Of a DNA stretch of 25,456 nucleotides, positions 14,250 to 23,182 are shown in pieces. Within the stretch, counting starts at the first letter, position 1. The number at the start of each line of letters is the position of its first letter. Origin of the DNA: a virus. The position numbers and the translations under genes were made by a program. Below the pieces are notes generated by a model, which did not search any database, was not told the origin of the DNA, and saw only the letters and a program-made list of their open reading frames with translations. Location: positions 1 through 25,456 of IMG/VR virus record IMGVR_UViG_3300044675_002113; one strand, given 5' to 3'.

Positions 14250-16490
14250 TTAGCGTCTCATGGAGTTAAGGTTTTGAAACCGTTTATCTTTAGGTATCCT
14301 GCCGTATATCGGCACGGCGTACCCTTCAGAAAAATCTACATCTACCAGCGGTTCGCCGGTTTCAGGGTCGAAGTCTGGGAAGTTAAATTCTTCGCCCAGC
14401 GTCGGCGGCGTGATACCTGCCACACCTGTCTGCACCACGGCTTGTTGTCTGGCAGGCGCCGCCTGCGATCCATACAGCATTTTGTTTATGTAATCTTCAG
14501 CCGGGCGTACCTTAAGTAACGCACCCGCTTCGCGCGGCGACGCCAACGCAGGGACTAGCGCACCCAACGTTCTTTCGGATGCTTTCTCTGCTTGACGCAC
14601 CCCAAACTGTTGTGCGGCCACGCCGCCGCCGCCAATCTTGGGTATGCTGCCTACCAAGCGCGCGCCTGCGGTAAAAGCATTTGCTGCGGGCGACTCAAAC
14701 ATTTCCCCAACCTTAGCGCCAACGCCTTGAGGGAAGTTTAACTTCTGCGACTGAGACAAGTCTTCAAGACCTGTCTGCGCTACGGCGCGTTGCGCTTCAA
14801 TATCGCGGCCTAGCTTGTTAGCAGTAGCTAAATCCGCGCCCTGCAATTCTACGTTAATGTCGTAACGCCCCGGACCAAGAATGTTTTCCACAAAGTCTGG
14901 GTCTTCGCCAGCCATGACTTTAGCAAACCTTGCTTCAGGCAACTTTGCCAGTTCCCGCTGAAACTGTTGGCGCTCAATCGCCTTCATTCCTTTGGAAAAC
15001 TCATCTAAATACGCTTTCCATCCAGCGCCGCCGGCGGCCTCAATAGCATCATCAATAGGTTTTTGTGCAGCGGCAACAAGTTGCGACGTGCCTTGCCGCA
15101 ACGCTTTAGGGTCTGAAGTGCCTAGGATGCTGCTTACAAAACTGCCCATTTCGCGGCGGGCTAGGTAAAGCCCTTCTGCGTCAATGACGCCGCCCATTTT
15201 ATCTGCGCGGAGTTCTAGATTGTCCGCAAATTGCGACAGTATCTTAAACCGATCAGGGCTAACAAATTGTGCTTTGTCTGCTTCCCTACGCAAGTTGGCT
15301 ACGATTGGTGCGACGTCCAAAGGCGGCAGGCCCGCATTTGCTGCTTGAAGGTTTGCTTCGCGCATCGGACCTGTTACATCCTGCAACGCCCGCTTAGTTT
15401 CCGCTATGTTACCTACAGCTTCTGTTTGAGTCCCGCCGCCGCTGATGACTTGGCGCATACGGTTCTGCCCTGCTGCGCGTTGTTGCGCGACAGTGAGAAG
15501 CGGACCGCCTTGTTTGCTGGCGCTGCCAATGCGGGTAGCCGCAGCCAGTTCAGGCGTGAGCAACCCACGCGACGCCAGAAACTCAGCCGTGTTGGCTTTG
15601 ATGTTTTTCGGCGCATTTCGTAACGCCTTTTCAATTTTGGTTGCGTTGTCGCTTATCACTTCGCGCAGGATTCTGGCTGCTTCCACTGGGCCAGCGCGGC
15701 CTGCTATAAGGTCATAAGTTTTGCCGGCGCCAAACTTAACTATGTGACCGACCACAGGTACAACAGCGCCCGCCAATGCGGCGTCTGTCATGTCCTGATC
15801 GGTTAACCCCGCGGCTATGGTACTTGCGCCAGCGCCGCCCGCAGCGCGGTAAGCATTTCGGGCTTTCCGCGTTTGAGCAATGATTTTGCCTGATGTTTCA
15901 GCCGCCTTTGTAGGCGCGGCTACGCCTGTACCGCCGGATGTTATAGCGCGGCCAGTTTTTTCTATTACACCGCCTAGCCGCGGTGCGACCTTAGTCAGCG
16001 CCCTGCCGCCAAGCTGCACCGCAGCACCGCCGCCCGCCGTAAATGGCAGCGTACCCACAATTTCACCGCCGAGTTTGCCGCCAGCAAAGGTGACGGGGTT
16101 CGCCTGTTGCCGTTCAGCAGCAAATTGCGCTAATCGCTTCTTGGTTTTGTCGGACGCACCTACTGGAATATATTCTAAAGGGTTAAGGTAAGATAGCTTT
16201 TCAGCAATCGGTTTTAGCCCCCGCTCAAACCCAGATACAGCAGACGCAATCTTACTGCCAGTGGCGCGCAGCGCGCTCTTCTCGTCTGCACGCTGTTTCG
16301 CCTGCTGCCTTGTGTAACGCTCTTTAGATGTCTCGACGTTAAACCGACGCCGAATTTCAGCCTGCGTAGCAGGACTTGCACTGCGGTACTCTGGCAGCGT
16401 AGCCACACGGCGATCAAAGATAGCCTGCTTTGTAGCTGGATTAGCGTTCACGTAGTTCGGGTCTTTTAAAATATCCAGCGCGCTAGGCAT
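14250..16490 (-). CDS. Large ejection (internal virion) protein, gp16-like position
   Basis: A 746-residue Ala/Gly-rich protein, third and last of the ejection-protein set in the place of P22 gp16. These proteins leave the capsid with the DNA and help it cross the cell envelope. The N-terminus holds two related short segments (about 12-28, NYVNANPATKQAI; 34-50, EYRSASPATQAEI), seen in many podovirus ejection proteins. Long helical stretches and several Gly/Ala-rich, membrane-prone stretches (about 135-170, 210-260) follow. AAGGGATTAATAGT precedes the ATG. No lysozyme or protease motif was found. The assignment is by synteny and character. Confidence 0.7.
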   Translation of the reverse strand: MPSALDILKDPNYVNANPATKQAIFDRRVATLPEYRSASPATQAEIRRRFNVETSKERYTRQQAKQRADEKSALRATGSKIASAVSGFERGLKPIAEKLSYLNPLEYIPVGASDKTKKRLAQFAAERQQANPVTFAGGKLGGEIVGTLPFTAGGGAAVQLGGRALTKVAPRLGGVIEKTGRAITSGGTGVAAPTKAAETSGKIIAQTRKARNAYRAAGGAGASTIAAGLTDQDMTDAALAGAVVPVVGHIVKFGAGKTYDLIAGRAGPVEAARILREVISDNATKIEKALRNAPKNIKANTAEFLASRGLLTPELAAATRIGSASKQGGPLLTVAQQRAAGQNRMRQVISGGGTQTEAVGNIAETKRALQDVTGPMREANLQAANAGLPPLDVAPIVANLRREADKAQFVSPDRFKILSQFADNLELRADKMGGVIDAEGLYLARREMGSFVSSILGTSDPKALRQGTSQLVAAAQKPIDDAIEAAGGAGWKAYLDEFSKGMKAIERQQFQRELAKLPEARFAKVMAGEDPDFVENILGPGRYDINVELQGADLATANKLGRDIEAQRAVAQTGLEDLSQSQKLNFPQGVGAKVGEMFESPAANAFTAGARLVGSIPKIGGGGVAAQQFGVRQAEKASERTLGALVPALASPREAGALLKVRPAEDYINKMLYGSQAAPARQQAVVQTGVAGITPPTLGEEFNFPDFDPETGEPLVDVDFSEGYAVPIYGRIPKDKRFQNLNSMRR

Positions 16491-16494
16491 ACTA

Positions 16495-18282
16495 TTAATC
16501 CCTTAGAAGCGGGTTATTGCGGTCCACCTTAGTTGACGTGCGCGGTTTAGCTAGGTCTTTAGAACTGATGTAACGGTCTGAAACCTTCGGCGCTACTAAC
16601 CGCAGCTTCGGGTTTTCCTTTAGCACTTCGCCGTACACGCCGTCATATTCGCGCTGGGCGCTCTGGTATGTGCGGTACAGTTTACGGCGCATATCTATTA
16701 ACTCAGCATCAAACGTAGCTGGTTCGCCTGTCTGAATTAGTTTGCTGGCCGCTTGCTCTACGATCTTGGCGTCCTTATCGGTCGGGTTAGCGCCGACCGG
16801 CGATGCGCCAGTTTCAGTAGACTTACGCATATCAATCAACGACGTAAGCGTAGCAGTATTTTTAATCTTATCAAAAGCAGCCTGTGCGTCAGCGCGCGCG
16901 CCGGTCTGCAAAAGGCGAGGCAAATTACCTTCAATCGGACCGACAATGGAGAAACGATTGGGGTTACGCAACAACTGATCTATGGTGTTGATGCGATCAA
17001 CTACCTCGTTGAGTATCCCTTCCGTAGCGTATTTTGCTCTTGTCGCTGTTGACTTCAACTCGACAGCGCGTTCCGCTTGCTTAGTCGCCTTCGCAATCTC
17101 CGGCGCCATTCGCAATTCTACATCCTTGGTAGCTTGCGCTTCTACCTGTTTCTCCGCGCCGAGGCGGCCCAAAGGCACCACCGATGATCCGGGCGCTATC
17201 GGTTGATTTGGATTACGCATCTGAAGCGGTGTGCTTGTGCGCGTTTGCGCCAGCGTTTGTTCCATCGGCGGCGCACCGCGCAGACCAGCGGTCTGCGACT
17301 GCATCGGCTCACCGCGGTAAACAGCAAACTGCGACTCCGGTGTTTGCACAGGGTTAGCGCCCATGGCGCTATCAGCCAGCGACGGTGCGTCGGCTTGCAG
17401 CGTAATGTTGGCCCGCTGAAAGGAGTCTACAAGCGCCTGCTTATTCTGCGGCGGTTGTGTAGCTAAAAGCTGATCAAAGTCCACCTGCGCCATGACGCCT
17501 GTTTGGAACGCAGAGTCAACAATGCGCGACATTACTTCAGGTGTCATCTGCACTGCGCCCATACCTGTAAAGGACGCCGGCGTGTCCGTCATGCCTGTTT
17601 CGCTTTGTATCCGACGCAAATCTTCTTGCTGATATGCGTTTAGGGGCCGTGTCTCGTCAGGCCCAAAGGTCATTTCTGCACCTGACACCGCGGACGGCTC
17701 ACGCCCCATAGCTGATGGTTGCGGTGCCGTCGGTGTCCGCGGAGCGGCAGGCGTTTCCGGTACATCATATACGCCCTCCTGTCCGGGGCGAAGACCGCCG
17801 ACAGTGACCGATCTAGGCATACCACCTTGAGAAAGTTCCAAACTGGCAACCGGCGTTGCGATAGTTTTTTCGATTTCTTTTTCGGACGTAATCATGAGCC
17901 GGTTTCGTGTATTGCGGTCCCATGTAGACGCGGGCGGTAAAAACTTATCAAAACCCGGCACGCGGCTTACTAAGTCAGCGCGTACTGCTTCTGCCGCCGC
18001 GACATCACCTTCCGCTATATCGCCGACGGCTTCGCGGAATATACCTAACGCCTGAACTATATTATCTTGCTGCGCTTTTGTTAACGCTGGACCGTGCAAC
18101 GCTGCGGCACGCGCTTCTTTAGCTGCTTCTATACCCATCGCCTGCTGCGCCAGCGCGGATTGACGCTCCGCCGCTTCCTGCTGCCGCGCCATGTTCATCA
18201 TGTTTACGAACTGCGCCGTGCGCCGCGACGGATCGGGAAGCTGTGGGCTGCGCGCTTGAAGTGCTATCATTTGGTTTGCCAT
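16495..18282 (-). CDS. DNA ejection/transfer protein, gp20-like position
   Basis: A 595-residue protein in the place of P22 gp20. The N-terminal ~200 residues are helical and Gln/Ala-rich. The middle (200-370) is low-complexity, rich in Pro, Thr and Gln. The C-terminal part is a helical domain with LIDMRKSTETGASPVG (~482-497), a segment found in many phage internal virion proteins. It probably lines the channel or stabilises DNA during ejection. The ribosome binding site is weak (ACGGATAAATC). Stop and start of neighbouring genes are only 3-4 bases away. Confidence 0.7.
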   Translation of the reverse strand: MANQMIALQARSPQLPDPSRRTAQFVNMMNMARQQEAAERQSALAQQAMGIEAAKEARAAALHGPALTKAQQDNIVQALGIFREAVGDIAEGDVAAAEAVRADLVSRVPGFDKFLPPASTWDRNTRNRLMITSEKEIEKTIATPVASLELSQGGMPRSVTVGGLRPGQEGVYDVPETPAAPRTPTAPQPSAMGREPSAVSGAEMTFGPDETRPLNAYQQEDLRRIQSETGMTDTPASFTGMGAVQMTPEVMSRIVDSAFQTGVMAQVDFDQLLATQPPQNKQALVDSFQRANITLQADAPSLADSAMGANPVQTPESQFAVYRGEPMQSQTAGLRGAPPMEQTLAQTRTSTPLQMRNPNQPIAPGSSVVPLGRLGAEKQVEAQATKDVELRMAPEIAKATKQAERAVELKSTATRAKYATEGILNEVVDRINTIDQLLRNPNRFSIVGPIEGNLPRLLQTGARADAQAAFDKIKNTATLTSLIDMRKSTETGASPVGANPTDKDAKIVEQAASKLIQTGEPATFDAELIDMRRKLYRTYQSAQREYDGVYGEVLKENPKLRLVAPKVSDRYISSKDLAKPRTSTKVDRNNPLLRD

Positions 18283-18285
18283 GAT

Positions 18286-19047
18286 TTATCCGTCGTATGA
18301 AGGGGGTATGTAAGGGGTTCCGCCGCCAACGCCGCCGCCGCTACCGGGCGTTCTGTTTTTATAGTACTGCATAATGGCGTTGTTCATAGGCGCGTTGGAT
18401 GCGTATCCACCTATCTGACCTAATGCGTTTGTCAGCGCATTAGCAGAGCCGATGTATCCAGACGCACGGGCTTGACCTGCGTTATAAATGTTCGACGCTT
18501 GGTTCTGGCCCATCTGTCCAGCAGCGCCTGTAAGCACGTTAGTTGCTGACTGACCTGAACCCATCAGCGATTGCAGCGGATTAAGGCGTGCTGCGCGCTC
18601 GACCTGATAGCGGTTAAACGCGTTCTGATATTCTTGGCTGGCTAAGTCTTGGCCGAAACGCTGCACACCCTTTAGGGTGGAACCGGACAGCAGATTGCCG
18701 CGGGCGGCTGCCGACCGCTCTAGCGCCTTCATGCCTTCTGCTTGGCGGAAAGCATAGCCGGGGTCTTGCTGAAATTGATCAGTACCAAAGGCTTTCGCCA
18801 TGCTGCCGTAGCCAGCGGCGGTCTTGTCGCCGCCGATGCCCAGAAGCTGCATAATCTCATTTTGCGCCGTCATCCCGCCTTGGCGAAACGGCTCTTGCAG
18901 TTCAATCTGCCGCTGGAACATGCGCTCCTGTGCAGCGTTAGCGTCTTGCGACGCCTGAACCTGCGCCCTAGACGCTTTTTTAGATGCCTTGCTGGAAATT
19001 ACCGCGCCGCCAACTGCGGCTGCTGCGGTTACTGCGGCTGCGACCAT
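18286..19047 (-). CDS. DNA ejection protein, gp7-like
   Basis: A 253-residue protein of the first ejection-protein type. The ATG at 19047 is preferred over a TTG at 19059: GGGGATTGAC precedes it and it starts one base after the previous stop. A hydrophobic Ala/Val segment (2-18) is followed by a helical, Gln-rich region. DPGYAFRQAEGMKALERSAA and GNLLSGSTLKGVQRFGQDLA (about residues 94-136), then SQEYQNAFNRYQ, are typical of podovirus DNA transfer proteins. The C-terminus is Gly-rich. It should be packed in the capsid and ejected before the DNA. Confidence 0.8.
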   Translation of the reverse strand: MVAAAVTAAAAVGGAVISSKASKKASRAQVQASQDANAAQERMFQRQIELQEPFRQGGMTAQNEIMQLLGIGGDKTAAGYGSMAKAFGTDQFQQDPGYAFRQAEGMKALERSAAARGNLLSGSTLKGVQRFGQDLASQEYQNAFNRYQVERAARLNPLQSLMGSGQSATNVLTGAAGQMGQNQASNIYNAGQARASGYIGSANALTNALGQIGGYASNAPMNNAIMQYYKNRTPGSGGGVGGGTPYIPPSYDG

Positions 19048-19048
19048 G

Positions 19049-19504
19049 TCAATCCCCAATCCATTTCGTGTAGTAAATCTCTACAGGTTCCATTTTCAAA
19101 TACTCAAACAGCCTAGATGCGTCCTTGTGCATTTTGGAGCCGTAGAACATACGATGCACCCCGCGCCTTTTAGCTTCTTTTTCGACTAAACGAAAGAGTT
19201 TTACGCCGCTAAATCCACCACGCACATCTGGGTGCGTCCAAAAGATGTCCATCGTCAGCGTCAGGCACGTCTTGTAGTGAAAGCCCGGCGCGATGAAACC
19301 TATGAAATATCCCACTAAACGGCCAGCTTCGCGCAGCGTAACCAGCAACAGTTGTCCTGCGTCGTCGCGCGCTTCGTACAAATCATATTGCGGATCAAGC
19401 GGTACTTTATCTTTGTTTAGCGCCAATTCTTCCCAGTGAAGGTCGTAGCACTCCATCAATTCTGGCAAACATTTGCTGTAAGGCTCGACTTGTGCCGTAA
19501 TCAT
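19049..19504 (-). CDS. GNAT-family N-acetyltransferase
   Basis: A 151-residue protein with the GNAT fold. A strand with GQLLLVTLREAGRLVGYFIGF leads to a strand and motif A (FWTHPDVRGGFSGVKLFRLV, about 87-106) whose R-G-G-x-S-G loop should hold the pyrophosphate of acetyl-CoA. The C-terminus has YLKMEPVEIYYTKW, the typical last strands. Such genes recur within podovirus tail/ejection blocks, and the substrate is unknown. The ATG overlaps the stop of the 2-oxoglutarate oxygenase gene (TAATG), so the two are coupled. Modification of a virion protein or a host target is possible. Confidence 0.8.
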   Translation of the reverse strand: MITAQVEPYSKCLPELMECYDLHWEELALNKDKVPLDPQYDLYEARDDAGQLLLVTLREAGRLVGYFIGFIAPGFHYKTCLTLTMDIFWTHPDVRGGFSGVKLFRLVEKEAKRRGVHRMFYGSKMHKDASRLFEYLKMEPVEIYYTKWIGD

Positions 19505-20046
19505 TATGCGCTCCTGATGTCCACTATGCAGACAATCCTATCATCGGCGCTGTTATTTACAACAGAATGTTTTACACGATTGTTTACCCACCACACTTCG
19601 CCGGTACAAAAACTTACCGTCTCGTCTTCGCAATGGAACAGCGCGCCGGGCAGCGACTGAAGCGCAATCTGATAGCGGGTGTAGAACTCAGCCGGTGCGC
19701 CATGATCGACGTGCGGCGTTATCTGACCGCCGGGCGGCAGCTTAGTGACGATGCAGCGGCCCAACTGCACGCCATCGACGCGGCGCATAAGGTCCAGCAC
19801 CAGCCGACGCAGCGACGGCAACTGTGTCCACGCAGGATAGGCTATCGTCTGGATGTCGTTGATAACCGCGGTCGGGTCTTCTGGTATCTCGTTAAACCAA
19901 AGCCAGATGTCGCTGACTTCAGCATGGGCCGTGTCGGGGTGCTGCGTCCGCAGCGTGTTCTGGTCCCATAAGTCTGGCTGCGTCGCCAACTCCCGCATAA
20001 CGGGAATGACGTCTATATTATCTGCCAGACAAAGAAAGTGCTGCAT
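19504..20046 (-). CDS. 2-oxoglutarate/Fe(II) oxygenase, Asp/Asn beta-hydroxylase-like
   Basis: A 180-residue dioxygenase-like protein. The facial triad is visible: H112-V-D114 in GGQITPHVDHG, and H160 in NNRVKHSVVNNS, with R170 (DDRIVCI) placed to bind the 2-oxoglutarate carboxylate. This arrangement matches the aspartyl/asparaginyl beta-hydroxylase family, at about the length of its catalytic core. No signal peptide is seen, so it should be cytoplasmic. It would hydroxylate an Asp, Asn or Pro in some protein; a virion component is an attractive but untested target. The gene overlaps both neighbours through TAATG and lies in the place of P22 gp14. Confidence 0.8.
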   Translation of the reverse strand: MQHFLCLADNIDVIPVMRELATQPDLWDQNTLRTQHPDTAHAEVSDIWLWFNEIPEDPTAVINDIQTIAYPAWTQLPSLRRLVLDLMRRVDGVQLGRCIVTKLPPGGQITPHVDHGAPAEFYTRYQIALQSLPGALFHCEDETVSFCTGEVWWVNNRVKHSVVNNSADDRIVCIVDIRSA

Positions 20047-20381
20047 TAGCTAACCAGACGACCTGACGCGCGGATGTTGATCGCCGACGCCGTGCCAGCG
20101 ATTGTGCTGATGAAGCCATTGTTAGGTAGCACATGGCCGACCAGTTCAGGAAACGTATACGTCTCTGATGGCTGGAGCGTCTTGGTCTTGACAATCAAGT
20201 TGTCGTTACCGGCGCTGCCCGCAGCCGTCACAAGGTTGACGCTGATTGTCGCAGCCGACACGCTGTAGTTAGTCGCGGTAAACTTGTCGATAATCGTCTG
20301 CACGCCATTCGACGTGTACTGTGTCGTCTGAGCGTTCTCCGCTGTCTTAGCGGGGATGATGTTACTAATGGTTACGGCCAT
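20046..20381 (-). CDS. Conserved beta-rich virion-associated protein (111 aa)
   Basis: The sequence MAVTISNIIPAKTAENAQTT, then VIDKF-like TIIDKFTATN, LVTAAGSAGNDNLIVKTKTL and TYTFPELVGH, matches a small protein common in phage structural regions. It is rich in Thr, Ala and Asn and predicted to be all beta. AAGGAACCAGAT precedes the ATG. It lies between the needle-position protein and the oxygenase. It may be a minor tail or head component; there is no functional proof. No cysteines or membrane segments are present. Confidence 0.65.
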   Translation of the reverse strand: MAVTISNIIPAKTAENAQTTQYTSNGVQTIIDKFTATNYSVSAATISVNLVTAAGSAGNDNLIVKTKTLQPSETYTFPELVGHVLPNNGFISTIAGTASAINIRASGRLVS

Positions 20382-20391
20382 ATCTGGTTCC

Positions 20392-21042
20392 TTAATACAG
20401 CAAAGTGTTAAACGAAGCGGCTTGCATGATAACCCAATTTGTGCCGTTTGACACTAGGGTAGCCCAATTACCAGACACGTTAAGTAAAATCGACGTTCCG
20501 GCTGCACCGCCGCCCTGCGGCACGACGTTGCTGGACGCAGAGTCAAGGTTCTGGTCTTGGTTGTTTTGGAACGTAAGATAGCGCCCGACGTTGGTCGCAG
20601 CGGCTGGCAGCGTGACAACGCAAGTCGATCCAGACTTGTTGTTGATGATCCATGTCTCGTTATACGCGACCGTGAAGTCAGCCGTCTTAGTGACAGGGCC
20701 GGTCAACGCGGGTATCAGCGCCCGTATGGCTATCTCATCTAGTGGCGGTGGTGACAGGGCCAGCGCCTGAAGGCTGCTCTGCACCACAGCCAAGTCAGAC
20801 GCGGACGCGCCGTCAGGCTGCGTCTCTGTGGTCTGCGCCAGCGTCTCCAACAGCGCGTCGTAGGTCGCCAACAGCGACGACGTGTCGGGCGCTACCTCGA
20901 CTTCACTTTGGTTGGCTTGCGTAGCTGTTAGCAGCGACAGAAAGAACCGATACCATTCACGGCTAATCGCGCCTGACCGTGGGTCGATCAGAGCCACGCG
21001 CGGCGGCGTTAGCTGCGTAGGGTTGATCGGCGGCAGCGCCAT
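20392..21042 (-). CDS. Tail protein in the gp26 (needle) position
   Basis: A 216-residue protein directly after the gp10-like gene, where P22 encodes tail needle gp26. The N-terminus has PPRVALIDPRSGAISREWYR and FFLSLL, a segment seen at the start of many phage tail-associated proteins. The middle (about 45-110) is helical and may form a coiled coil. The C-terminal 90 residues are beta-rich (TVAYNETWIINNKSG, then NGTNWVIM), like a small knob. The layout (anchor, coiled coil, knob) fits a needle or short fibre, but sequence similarity to gp26 is not evident. It starts within a TAATG overlap and has a weak ribosome binding site. Confidence 0.65.
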   Translation of the reverse strand: MALPPINPTQLTPPRVALIDPRSGAISREWYRFFLSLLTATQANQSEVEVAPDTSSLLATYDALLETLAQTTETQPDGASASDLAVVQSSLQALALSPPPLDEIAIRALIPALTGPVTKTADFTVAYNETWIINNKSGSTCVVTLPAAATNVGRYLTFQNNQDQNLDSASSNVVPQGGGAAGTSILLNVSGNWATLVSNGTNWVIMQAASFNTLLY

Positions 21043-22472
21043 TAGGCGCTTGTCCCACTGAGCAGCAGTTCAGCACCCATGATGTAAATCCGTACAGGGT
21101 CGGTGCCAGACACTTCGTAGACGCGGTCGCGTATTTTCATCGTCGCGCCAAGGCGGCGCCAGATGGTACGATAGCCAGACCGGCCAATCTGTCCCATCGA
21201 CTTCCAGTGTTCGCTGGACCATGTGTGGCCGCCATCGTCCGAGAAGCGCAGCATGACTTGCGGGTTGCTGCCTTGGCCGTTGTTCAGGCCCACGCCTGTC
21301 TCGCAGTCAAGCTGCATGGAGTGCTGGATAGTACGCGCAAGGTTGTTAGCGCCTGTCGGCAGCGCGCGCCATGACCGCAACCATTTCTGCGGCGCGCCAT
21401 CGTCAGCGTACACGTTCAGGTCAAACTCGTAAATCTTGCCGTTCTGGTAGTCGCCGACAACAGTTGTGCTGTTGAAAAACATCTGGCTGCTGGCGCGGTG
21501 ACGGTTAAAATCACCATTAGCGAACGACGCACGTTCATGCCATGCGCCGGTAGCGACATCGTACACCCATGTGGTGTCAGCGGTAGGGAAGTTCAGGACG
21601 TAGAAGCTGTGGCCGTCCTGCTGATATGTGTAGCCGGTCGCGTCTGAGATGTCGGCATACTCTTGCATCTGCCATTCGATAGCGTGCGTAGACACGCGCT
21701 GACCGATGTAGCCAGCGGCCCTGTAGACGATGCCTTGGCCGCGCGCGTCCTTGCCTAGCCAGTAGACTTGGTTGTCCATCTTAGCGATGCTGTACGGGGC
21801 AGCGCAGCCCAGTTCGTTGAACGCGCCTTGGATACGGGCCAGCGGGAAGTCGAGCAGCCCTGCGTCGTACCAAACTTCGGTCGAGTTGGTGCCGAATACC
21901 CACACTTCGCGGTGGTCAACAAAAATTGCGACCACATTGTCAGGATTGCCTTCTGCGCTGGAAAACTCCAGCGGGTCAACGCTGGTGCCGTCAAGCAGCG
22001 ATGTCACCCAGATTTTCTGTGTGCCGGGTTCGTTGAACACAAAATAGCCGTCGATGTAGCCGACCGTGCCAGCGCCGGGGAAGTCAGGGTCGGTGATCTG
22101 CTGGAACACGTCGGTGCTGGCGTTGTAGATATAACCTAATGGGTTAGCAGCGATGAATAGCTGCGTGCCGTTGTCAGCCATGCTGACAGGGCCAGAGCCG
22201 CCTACAGTTCCTTTAGCGACAGCGTTCCAGTTGTTGTCTACCTGAAACAGCGTTGGGCCAGACACGACATAGCCGTAATCGCCATAAGTCCACATGCCGC
22301 GGATCGGGCCAATGCCGATAGTCGCCAGCCGCGTGAGGCCGGGCGCGCGCTGAAGGAACGCTGGTTCCTTGCCGCCTTCTGGGACAATCTCAGGAAACAG
22401 GTTAACCATGCGGTTGTCGGCGGCGTTGACGCTTCTAGCGACATACGCCGACCCAAGGATCGGCGTCTTCAT
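21042..22472 (-). CDS. P22 gp10-like packaged DNA stabilisation protein
   Basis: A 476-residue tail-hub protein that plugs the portal after packaging. The N-terminus (SAYVARSVNAADNRMVNLFPE, then FLQRAPGLTRLATIG) is characteristic of the phage stabilisation protein family. The rest repeats beta strands rich in Trp, Tyr and Gly (DYGYVVSG, FIAANPLGYIYN, YFVFNEPGTQ, DHREVWVFGTNSTEVWYD), as expected of the beta-propeller-like fold. Length is close to P22 gp10 (472). AGGAAACTACTA precedes the ATG, which overlaps the gp4-like stop as TAATG. It follows the gp4-like gene exactly as in P22. Confidence 0.9.
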   Translation of the reverse strand: MKTPILGSAYVARSVNAADNRMVNLFPEIVPEGGKEPAFLQRAPGLTRLATIGIGPIRGMWTYGDYGYVVSGPTLFQVDNNWNAVAKGTVGGSGPVSMADNGTQLFIAANPLGYIYNASTDVFQQITDPDFPGAGTVGYIDGYFVFNEPGTQKIWVTSLLDGTSVDPLEFSSAEGNPDNVVAIFVDHREVWVFGTNSTEVWYDAGLLDFPLARIQGAFNELGCAAPYSIAKMDNQVYWLGKDARGQGIVYRAAGYIGQRVSTHAIEWQMQEYADISDATGYTYQQDGHSFYVLNFPTADTTWVYDVATGAWHERASFANGDFNRHRASSQMFFNSTTVVGDYQNGKIYEFDLNVYADDGAPQKWLRSWRALPTGANNLARTIQHSMQLDCETGVGLNNGQGSNPQVMLRFSDDGGHTWSSEHWKSMGQIGRSGYRTIWRRLGATMKIRDRVYEVSGTDPVRIYIMGAELLLSGTSA

Positions 22473-23182
22473 TAGTAGTTTCCTGCGTAGACGTTAAATC
22501 GCTGGCGTGTAGCTACAAGGCTGTATGGCATCGACATGATGTCATCAGGGTTGTTGATGCGCTTGATGTTACGTTTCGACGACATCGCCAGACGGCGGAC
22601 TTGCGACGAAGGCTCGACGCCAAACTCAGGTGCCATTTCGCACGCCAAGTTATAACGGAACGCACGCAAATAGCCGGGCGGGAAATGCAGTACTGTCGCC
22701 AGCGTTGCAGGCTGGGTCAGTTCTTCTACCGAAATGAAATGCCATTCCAGCGCACGCGTCGGGCGCGGGTAGATGTACATTTCAACGTCGGGGAACGTCA
22801 TGTTGACAAAGATGACTTGCGGGTATGTCGATGTGACGGTCTTGACCGCGATACCGTTATACTGCTGCTGGTTGATGAATTTGATGCCGTAGCTGACACC
22901 GGTGCCGGGGTCTTTGAAATACGTGCTGTCGTCGAGCAACACTGGACGGTTGCCGCTGAAGTCGCCGCTAGGGCCAAGCGTGCGCGATAGCTGGCCTGCG
23001 GGCCATGTGAATATCTGGTCTTGCGTTGCGTAGACGGACAGGCGCTCTGTGTTCCAGCTATCAATCATCTGGTTCATGGCGCGCAGTGCGTCTTGCGATG
23101 TCTCAGCCGATGGAACTTCGCCTTCTGCCAGAACACCTAGAAGCCTAAGCGATCCGTTGATTATGTCCCCAGCCGTATCCAT
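22472..23182 (-). CDS. P22 gp4-like tail accessory factor
   Basis: A 236-residue head-completion protein that binds the portal ring and joins head to tail. It starts with AGDIINGSLRLLGVLAEGE and AMNQMIDSWNTERLSVYA, typical of this family. It ends with a C-terminal helical part (FRYNLACEMAPEFGVEPS, then AMSSKRNIKRIN). P22 gp4 has 166 residues, but homologues in other podoviruses are commonly over 200. AGGAAG precedes the ATG. It is coupled to the gp10-like gene downstream. Confidence 0.85.
   Translation of the reverse strand: MDTAGDIINGSLRLLGVLAEGEVPSAETSQDALRAMNQMIDSWNTERLSVYATQDQIFTWPAGQLSRTLGPSGDFSGNRPVLLDDSTYFKDPGTGVSYGIKFINQQQYNGIAVKTVTSTYPQVIFVNMTFPDVEMYIYPRPTRALEWHFISVEELTQPATLATVLHFPPGYLRAFRYNLACEMAPEFGVEPSSQVRRLAMSSKRNIKRINNPDDIMSMPYSLVATRQRFNVYAGNY

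What the first reader, a model, noticed from the sequence alone, without database searches (positions are those of the whole stretch)
19049..20046. Coupled 2OG oxygenase and GNAT acetyltransferase inside the tail/ejection block
The oxygenase has a full H-x-D...H triad and Arg, and the acetyltransferase has a CoA loop. They overlap by TAATG and sit between tail-needle-position and ejection-protein genes. Two protein-modifying enzymes expressed with virion genes suggest hydroxylation or acetylation of a tail, capsid or host protein. This is the best candidate for undescribed biology here.
Basis: partly seen in the sequence, partly recalled or inferred. Interest (0 to 1): 0.65.

Follow-up and report, generated by a model that had tools for sequence, protein, structure and literature searches.

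The report
Phage hydroxylase–acetyltransferase gene pair
A short-tailed phage carries two overlapping genes for intact-looking enzymes, an iron-dependent hydroxylase and an acetyltransferase, directly before a gene for a protein injected into the host; the pair stays together in well over a hundred related viral sequences, so it is very probably functional, but what it modifies is unknown.

Summary
On the minus strand a 180-aa Fe(II)/2-oxoglutarate oxygenase (PF05118 type) overlaps a 151-aa GNAT by TAATG, and one base after the GNAT stop comes the ATG of a P22-gp7-like ejection protein. H112, D114, H160 and R170 are invariant in 51 oxygenases. The GNAT is real by sequence, model and selection, but its CoA loop is degenerate.

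In a second lineage (Limnohabitans phage DC33) the pair sits between terminase and portal (32 of 32), and again a small Ala/Gly-rich protein follows.

GNATs beside internal virion genes are already published (cobaviruses, compared with T7 gp13), and the GNAT Rac near the phiKMV portal acts on the host. The obligate pairing with a hydroxylase I found nowhere described in the open-access library searched.

Most likely this is a late two-enzyme protein-modifying cassette acting on the ejection protein; that target is inferred from position only. Host targets, small molecules and a non-catalytic assembly role remain open.

The parts
19504..20046 (-). Fe(II)/2-oxoglutarate oxygenase gene, 180 aa, PF05118 type; metal ligands H112, D114, H160 and 2OG-binding R170
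   Evidence: PF05118 E 5.1e-13; invariant residues in 51 sequences; AlphaFold model pLDDT 96.2, best PDB match 4p7w; dN/dS 0.05-0.12
19049..19504 (-). GNAT acetyltransferase gene, 151 aa, with degenerate CoA loop RGGFSG (residues 95-100)
   Evidence: PF00583 E 1.9e-5, phrog_1249 E 5.8e-9; model pLDDT 95.9, PDB matches AAC(3)-Ia and RimI; dN/dS 0.02-0.08
19502..19506 (-). TAATG stop/start overlap coupling oxygenase and GNAT
   Evidence: sequence; distance -1 or -4 in 96 of 120 distinct pairs
18286..19047 (-). ejection protein gene (P22 gp7-like), ATG at 19047 one base after the GNAT stop; proposed target
   Evidence: phrog_598 'DNA ejection' E 9.5e-41; TGAcATG junction; same family at this position in 92 of 115 loci
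20046..20381 (-). 111-aa gene of unknown function, TAATG overlap with the oxygenase; not a constant partner
   Evidence: sequence; its family occupies this position in 58 of 128 loci

Best explanation
The two genes form a co-translated late cassette of two enzymes that modify protein. The oxygenase uses Fe(II), O2 and 2-oxoglutarate to hydroxylate a side chain; the GNAT transfers an acetyl group. The most likely target is the small ejection protein made directly downstream, or its assembly partners, altered while the virion is built so that its Ala/Gly-rich N-terminal part, probably membrane-inserting, is kept soluble in the head or works at injection. Shown here: gene structure, intact active-site residues, purifying selection, obligate pairing, and recurrence just before small Ala/Gly-rich virion-type proteins in different phage lineages. 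Inferred: that the GNAT is catalytic despite its odd loop, that the substrate is a protein, that it is the ejection protein, and the effect.
For: Pairing: 105/105 and 79/80 loci, 32/32 DC33-type loci at a different genome position, also in isolates PfAn1 and DC33. Oxygenase active site invariant in 51 sequences; GNAT H23, Y43, Y66, H76, D86 and K124 invariant in 52. dN/dS well below 1. Oxygenase and GNAT divergence correlate after lineage correction (partial Mantel 0.32, 0 of 2000 permutations). The gene after the pair starts with an Ala/Gly-rich stretch in 92% of 102 loci against 0.6% of 997 other genes; the same look follows a lone oxygenase (L004, L301) and a lone GNAT in Zobellviridae.
Against: No biochemical evidence. 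Neither enzyme co-varies with the ejection protein after lineage correction (0.06 and 0.08). P22-type and DC33-type downstream proteins are not shown to be homologous (hhalign 8%). Most following genes are homologous to each other, so the 92% is not 102 independent cases. L005 has a GNAT before a gp7-like protein without the Ala/Gly-rich start. Closest solved oxygenases include small-molecule enzymes.
Confidence: 0.4

Rival explanations
1. Host take-over: the pair modifies host proteins late in infection, as the phiKMV-like GNAT Rac (LUZ19 gp28) does by triggering cleavage of the host RNA polymerase alpha subunit.
For: Rac is a GNAT lying just before a small particle protein and the portal, as in DC33-type phages; the window GNAT and Rac both match phrog_1249.
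Against: No phage-type RNA polymerase in 15 related records, PfAn1 or DC33, while the search rang in T7, LUZ19 and VPv81, so these phages probably need host polymerase for late genes. Rac's own family phrog_3986 was not matched by the window GNAT. Expression with virion genes is late for a take-over factor.
Confidence: 0.2
2. Non-catalytic assembly role: the GNAT-fold protein acts as a virion assembly or stability factor at the slot of P22 gp14 or T7 gp13, and the oxygenase is a separate enzyme hitch-hiking next to it.
For: P22 gp14, annotated 'virion stability factor', is also 151 aa and lies between gp26 and gp7; T7 gp13 precedes gp14-16, and a GNAT beside internal virion proteins was equated with T7 gp13 (PMC6775973). 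The CoA loop is degenerate.
Against: No sequence match to P22 gp14 (PF11039) or T7 gp13 (PF11090) (hhalign probabilities under 1%). Invariant polar residues and the invariant oxygenase triad point to catalysis. The pair is kept together at a second genome position.
Confidence: 0.15
3. Small-molecule chemistry: the oxygenase hydroxylates a free amino acid or nucleoside-like compound and the GNAT acetylates a small amine, as auxiliary metabolism or detoxification.
For: Best structural matches are free L-proline cis-4-hydroxylase and a nucleoside-antibiotic hydroxylase for the oxygenase, AAC(3)-Ia for the GNAT.
Against: Tight coupling to virion genes at two different genome positions and recurrence before small virion-type proteins; identities of 14-19% to these structures do not define a substrate; protein hydroxylases (AspH) and RimI are among the near matches too.
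Confidence: 0.15

Closest known systems
Aspartyl/asparaginyl beta-hydroxylase family PF05118 and relatives (L-proline cis-4-hydroxylase 4p7w, AspH)
   Same: Profile match, double-stranded beta-helix fold, conserved HxD...H...R
   Different: Small single-domain phage protein, 14-19% identical to solved structures; substrate unknown; full HxD...H triad, whereas AspH (from memory) lacks the carboxylate ligand
Podovirus GNAT beside internal virion protein genes (cobavirus pc40, ZP6 ORF12; compared with T7 gp13)
   Same: GNAT gene between tail genes and ejection/internal virion genes; same PHROG group as Zobellviridae GNATs
   Different: No hydroxylase partner there; here the pair is obligate
Rac of phiKMV-like phages (LUZ19 gp28)
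   Same: Phage GNAT in front of a small virion protein and portal, like the DC33-type arrangement
   Different: Different PHROG (phrog_3986); Rac phages carry their own RNA polymerase, oxygenase-GNAT phages do not
P22 gp14 (DUF2824)
   Same: Same slot (between gp26 and gp7) and same length, 151 aa
   Different: No detectable sequence relation; that DUF2824 has a GNAT fold is only a recollection, not tested

Membership tests
Asp/Asn beta-hydroxylase family PF05118 | profile score above the curated cut-off | tested here: met
   49.6 bits against 22.6
Asp/Asn beta-hydroxylase family PF05118 | Fe(II) and 2OG ligands (His, Asp, His, Arg) on a double-stranded beta-helix | tested here: met
   H112, D114, H160, R170 invariant in 51 sequences; model matches 4p7w, 1e5s, AspH
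Asp/Asn beta-hydroxylase family PF05118 | hydroxylation of Asp/Asn in proteins | not testable with these tools
   no assay; relatives act on proteins and on small molecules
GNAT superfamily (PF00583) | profile score and fold | tested here: met
   25.4 bits against 20.7; model pLDDT 95.9 matching CoA-bound GNATs
GNAT superfamily (PF00583) | CoA pyrophosphate loop Q/R-x-x-G-x-G/A | tested here: inconclusive
   R95 in 51/52 and G/A100 in 50/52 kept; first Gly only 13/52, Phe in the window
GNAT superfamily (PF00583) | acetyl-CoA dependent transfer | not testable with these tools
   no assay
Podovirus GNAT of the internal-virion-protein slot (T7 gp13 position) | GNAT gene directly 5' of the first ejection/internal virion gene | tested here: met
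   TGAcATG junction to a phrog_598 gene; same family follows in 92 of 115 loci
Rac (phrog_3986) | sequence membership in the Rac family | tested here: not met
   window GNAT hits phrog_1249 and phrog_3810, not phrog_3986; LUZ19 Rac hits phrog_3986 at 2e-66
P22 gp14 (PF11039) / T7 gp13 (PF11090) | sequence membership | tested here: not met
   no hit while P22 gp14 and T7 gp13 hit their own models; hhalign under 1%

The most novel reading that the evidence does not exclude
The two enzymes act in sequence on the same site or the same ejection protein (hydroxylation, then acetylation): a two-step modification of a virion protein that is injected into the host, i.e. a dedicated modification system for phage injection machinery.
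Probability: 0.12. Interest if true: 0.85.

Novelty: new variant of a known kind. Interest (0 to 1): 0.5.

Why it matters
Unexplained GNATs sit next to ejection-protein genes in many podoviruses, and I found no proven virion substrate for them in the papers searched. A version obligately paired with an oxygenase gives two distinct, easily measured mass shifts (+16 and +42 Da) and two isolated phages (PfAn1 and DC33) in which to look for them. If the ejection protein is modified, it would show that phages chemically tune proteins they inject.

Tried and rejected
(1) Homology of the GNAT with P22 gp14 and T7 gp13: slot and (for P22) length agree, but hhalign gives under 1% probability, also with phiSG1 added to P22 gp14; kept as an analogy only. 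(2) P22-type and DC33-type downstream proteins as one family: alike by eye, but hhalign 8%; DC33 type against Zobellviridae type 94%, P22 type against Zobellviridae type 49%. (3) Co-variation of the enzymes with the ejection protein: nearly absent after lineage correction. (4) N-terminal acetylation suggested by a small residue at position 2 of the downstream protein: 93% against 75% in other genes, too weak. (5) The 111-aa neighbour as a constant partner: present at that position in only 58 of 128 loci. (6) Rac-like shut-off of host polymerase: disfavoured, no phage RNA polymerase found while the search rang in T7, LUZ19 and VPv81. (7) How common the pair is in prophages: oxygenase found in 1 of 399 genomes drawn from the order of the Massilia prophage host, the one being that host itself. 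(9) Paper searches for the pairing found nothing.

Full report
OBSERVATION. Both genes exist where stated. On the minus strand the order is head-tail adaptor (22472-23182), head closure Hc3 (21042-22472, phrog_578 1.1e-132), a needle-position gene (20392-21042), a 111-aa gene (20046-20381), the oxygenase (19504-20046), the GNAT (19049-19504), an ejection protein (ORF 18286-19059, phrog_598 9.5e-41, natural ATG at 19047) and two long proteins at the positions of the remaining ejection proteins. The junctions are tight: 10 bases between needle-position gene and 111-aa gene, then TAATG, TAATG and TGAcATG. The window is a whole 25,456-base virus record with a P22-type coat protein (PF11651 1.8e-32).

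ENZYMES. The oxygenase passes PF05118 (49.6 bits against 22.6). In 51 aligned sequences, many under 60% identical to the window, H112, D114, H160 and R170 are invariant, as are W27, R97, R124, E142, G149, W152, N164 and D176. Its AlphaFold model (pLDDT 96.2) is closest to L-proline cis-4-hydroxylase 4p7w (E 4.9e-10), then a nucleoside-antibiotic hydroxylase, proline 3-hydroxylase and AspH, in agreement with the profile search of PDB sequences. The GNAT passes PF00583 narrowly (25.4 against 20.7), matches phrog_1249 'acetyltransferase' (5.8e-9), and its model (pLDDT 95.9) matches AAC(3)-Ia and RimI. H23, Y43, R58, Y66, H76, Y77, D86 and K124 are invariant in 52 sequences; the CoA loop keeps R95 and G/A100 but not the first Gly. 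dN/dS is 0.05-0.12 (oxygenase) and 0.02-0.08 (GNAT). So both are maintained proteins, and the oxygenase at least looks fully competent; GNAT catalysis is likely but unproven.

PAIRING. IMG/VR was scanned with the oxygenase (single sequence and profile) and with the GNAT, and bacterial genomes with the oxygenase profile; the loci were analysed together. Of 105 oxygenase-selected loci with at least 400 bases downstream, all have the GNAT next to it; of 80 GNAT-selected loci with 600 bases upstream, 79 have the oxygenase, and L113 has none. (One search also flags L176 and L103, but these are artefacts of taking the longest ORF start; one search gives a 2-base gap for L103.) Many loci are near-duplicates; 50 oxygenase representatives below 82% identity remain. 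In 96 of 120 distinct pairs the GNAT start lies at -1 or -4 relative to the oxygenase stop. Three loci have a short ORF between the two and still keep both (L154, L156, L186). Prophages in Massilia, Janthinobacterium, Paraburkholderia, Caballeronia and Pseudacidovorax have the pair, as does the isolated Pseudomonas phage PfAn1. Oxygenase and GNAT divergence correlate beyond what the head-closure protein explains (partial Mantel 0.32, 0 of 2000 permutations).

SECOND LOCATION. Limnohabitans phage DC33 has a different architecture: terminase large subunit, oxygenase, GNAT, a 107-aa protein, portal-type connector. Its 33 relatives in IMG/VR repeat the pair, 32 of 32 where sequence continues past the oxygenase. 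In ctEw122 the GNAT alone occupies that slot, followed by two small genes and the connector. So the pair is not merely frozen in one gene order.

WHAT FOLLOWS THE PAIR. The next gene encodes a protein starting with an Ala/Gly/Val-rich stretch followed by a polar Ala/Gln/Lys-rich segment, as in MVAAAVTAAAAVGGAVISSKASKKASRAQ of the window. By a simple count (14 of 16 residues A, G, V, I or S near the N-terminus) 92% of 102 following genes have it, against 0.6% of 997 other genes in the same loci. The same look follows the pair in DC33-type phages, a lone GNAT in Zobellviridae and a lone oxygenase in MW202665 and L301. T7 gp14 begins similarly. These are resemblances: hhalign supports DC33 type with Zobellviridae type (94%) but not with the P22 type (8%). 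This recurrence is the main reason to propose the ejection protein as target; the absence of co-variation with it is the main reason for caution.

COMPARISON WITH WHAT IS KNOWN. A GNAT next to internal virion proteins was noted in cobaviruses and compared with T7 gp13, with a suggested role in virion morphogenesis (PMC6775973), and appears in Alteromonas phage ZP6 after tail tubular protein B (PMC8515928). Rac of phiKMV-like phages is a GNAT near the portal that triggers cleavage of the host RNA polymerase alpha subunit (PMC7552054); the LUZ19 order is polymerase, gp27, Rac, particle protein gp29, portal. Phages with the oxygenase-GNAT pair showed no phage-type RNA polymerase in 15 records, nor in PfAn1 and DC33, while the search rang in T7, LUZ19 and VPv81, which argues against the same trick. 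An AspH-type gene in DC33 is mentioned among its metabolic genes (PMC12195039). My searches of the open-access library found no paper on the pairing; subscription journals are mostly not covered.

VERDICT. A real, conserved, probably enzymatic two-gene cassette; each half belongs to a known kind, the obligate combination appears undescribed. Best guess: late modification of the ejection protein or its partners (0.4). The claim rests on position and conservation, and mass spectrometry on existing isolates would decide much of it.

Noticed in passing
L343:1131-1835 (T7 genes 7 and 7.3): T7 gp7 (phrog_2746, 'host range') is weakly matched by several phage GNATs (ctEw122 0.0027, Vibrio 275E43-1 0.0052, LUZ19 Rac 0.012) and lies just before gp7.3, annotated as T7 virion assembly protein; T7 gp7 may be a diverged GNAT in the Rac slot.
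   Followed up: partly
L114, L156, L161, L164, L188 (gene after the GNAT): A minority of downstream ejection proteins have a 15-25 aa N-terminal extension with a Cys within a few residues of the Ala/Gly-rich stretch (5 of 8 with an extension); T7 gp14 homologues start MCW. P22 gp7 loses 20 N-terminal residues to OpdA per its GenBank note.
   Followed up: partly
L004:7995-9172 and L301: In Manatee Spring podovirus ctXG1253 and one IMG/VR relative the oxygenase occurs without a GNAT, directly before a DNA-ejection gene (phrog_21132).
   Followed up: partly
L003 (PQ492659.1): Limnohabitans phage DC33 is filed under Inoviridae in its record although it encodes a terminase and a podovirus-type connector; a mislabelled taxonomy line.
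   Followed up: no
L189 (Dyella jiangningensis chromosome): Oxygenase and GNAT are both present but the reading frames are broken up (81-aa and 112-aa fragments), a decayed prophage copy.
   Followed up: no
window 14250-18282: The two long genes after the ejection protein (595 and 746 aa) have no Pfam or PHROG match at the limits used although their position is that of P22 genes 20 and 16.
   Followed up: no
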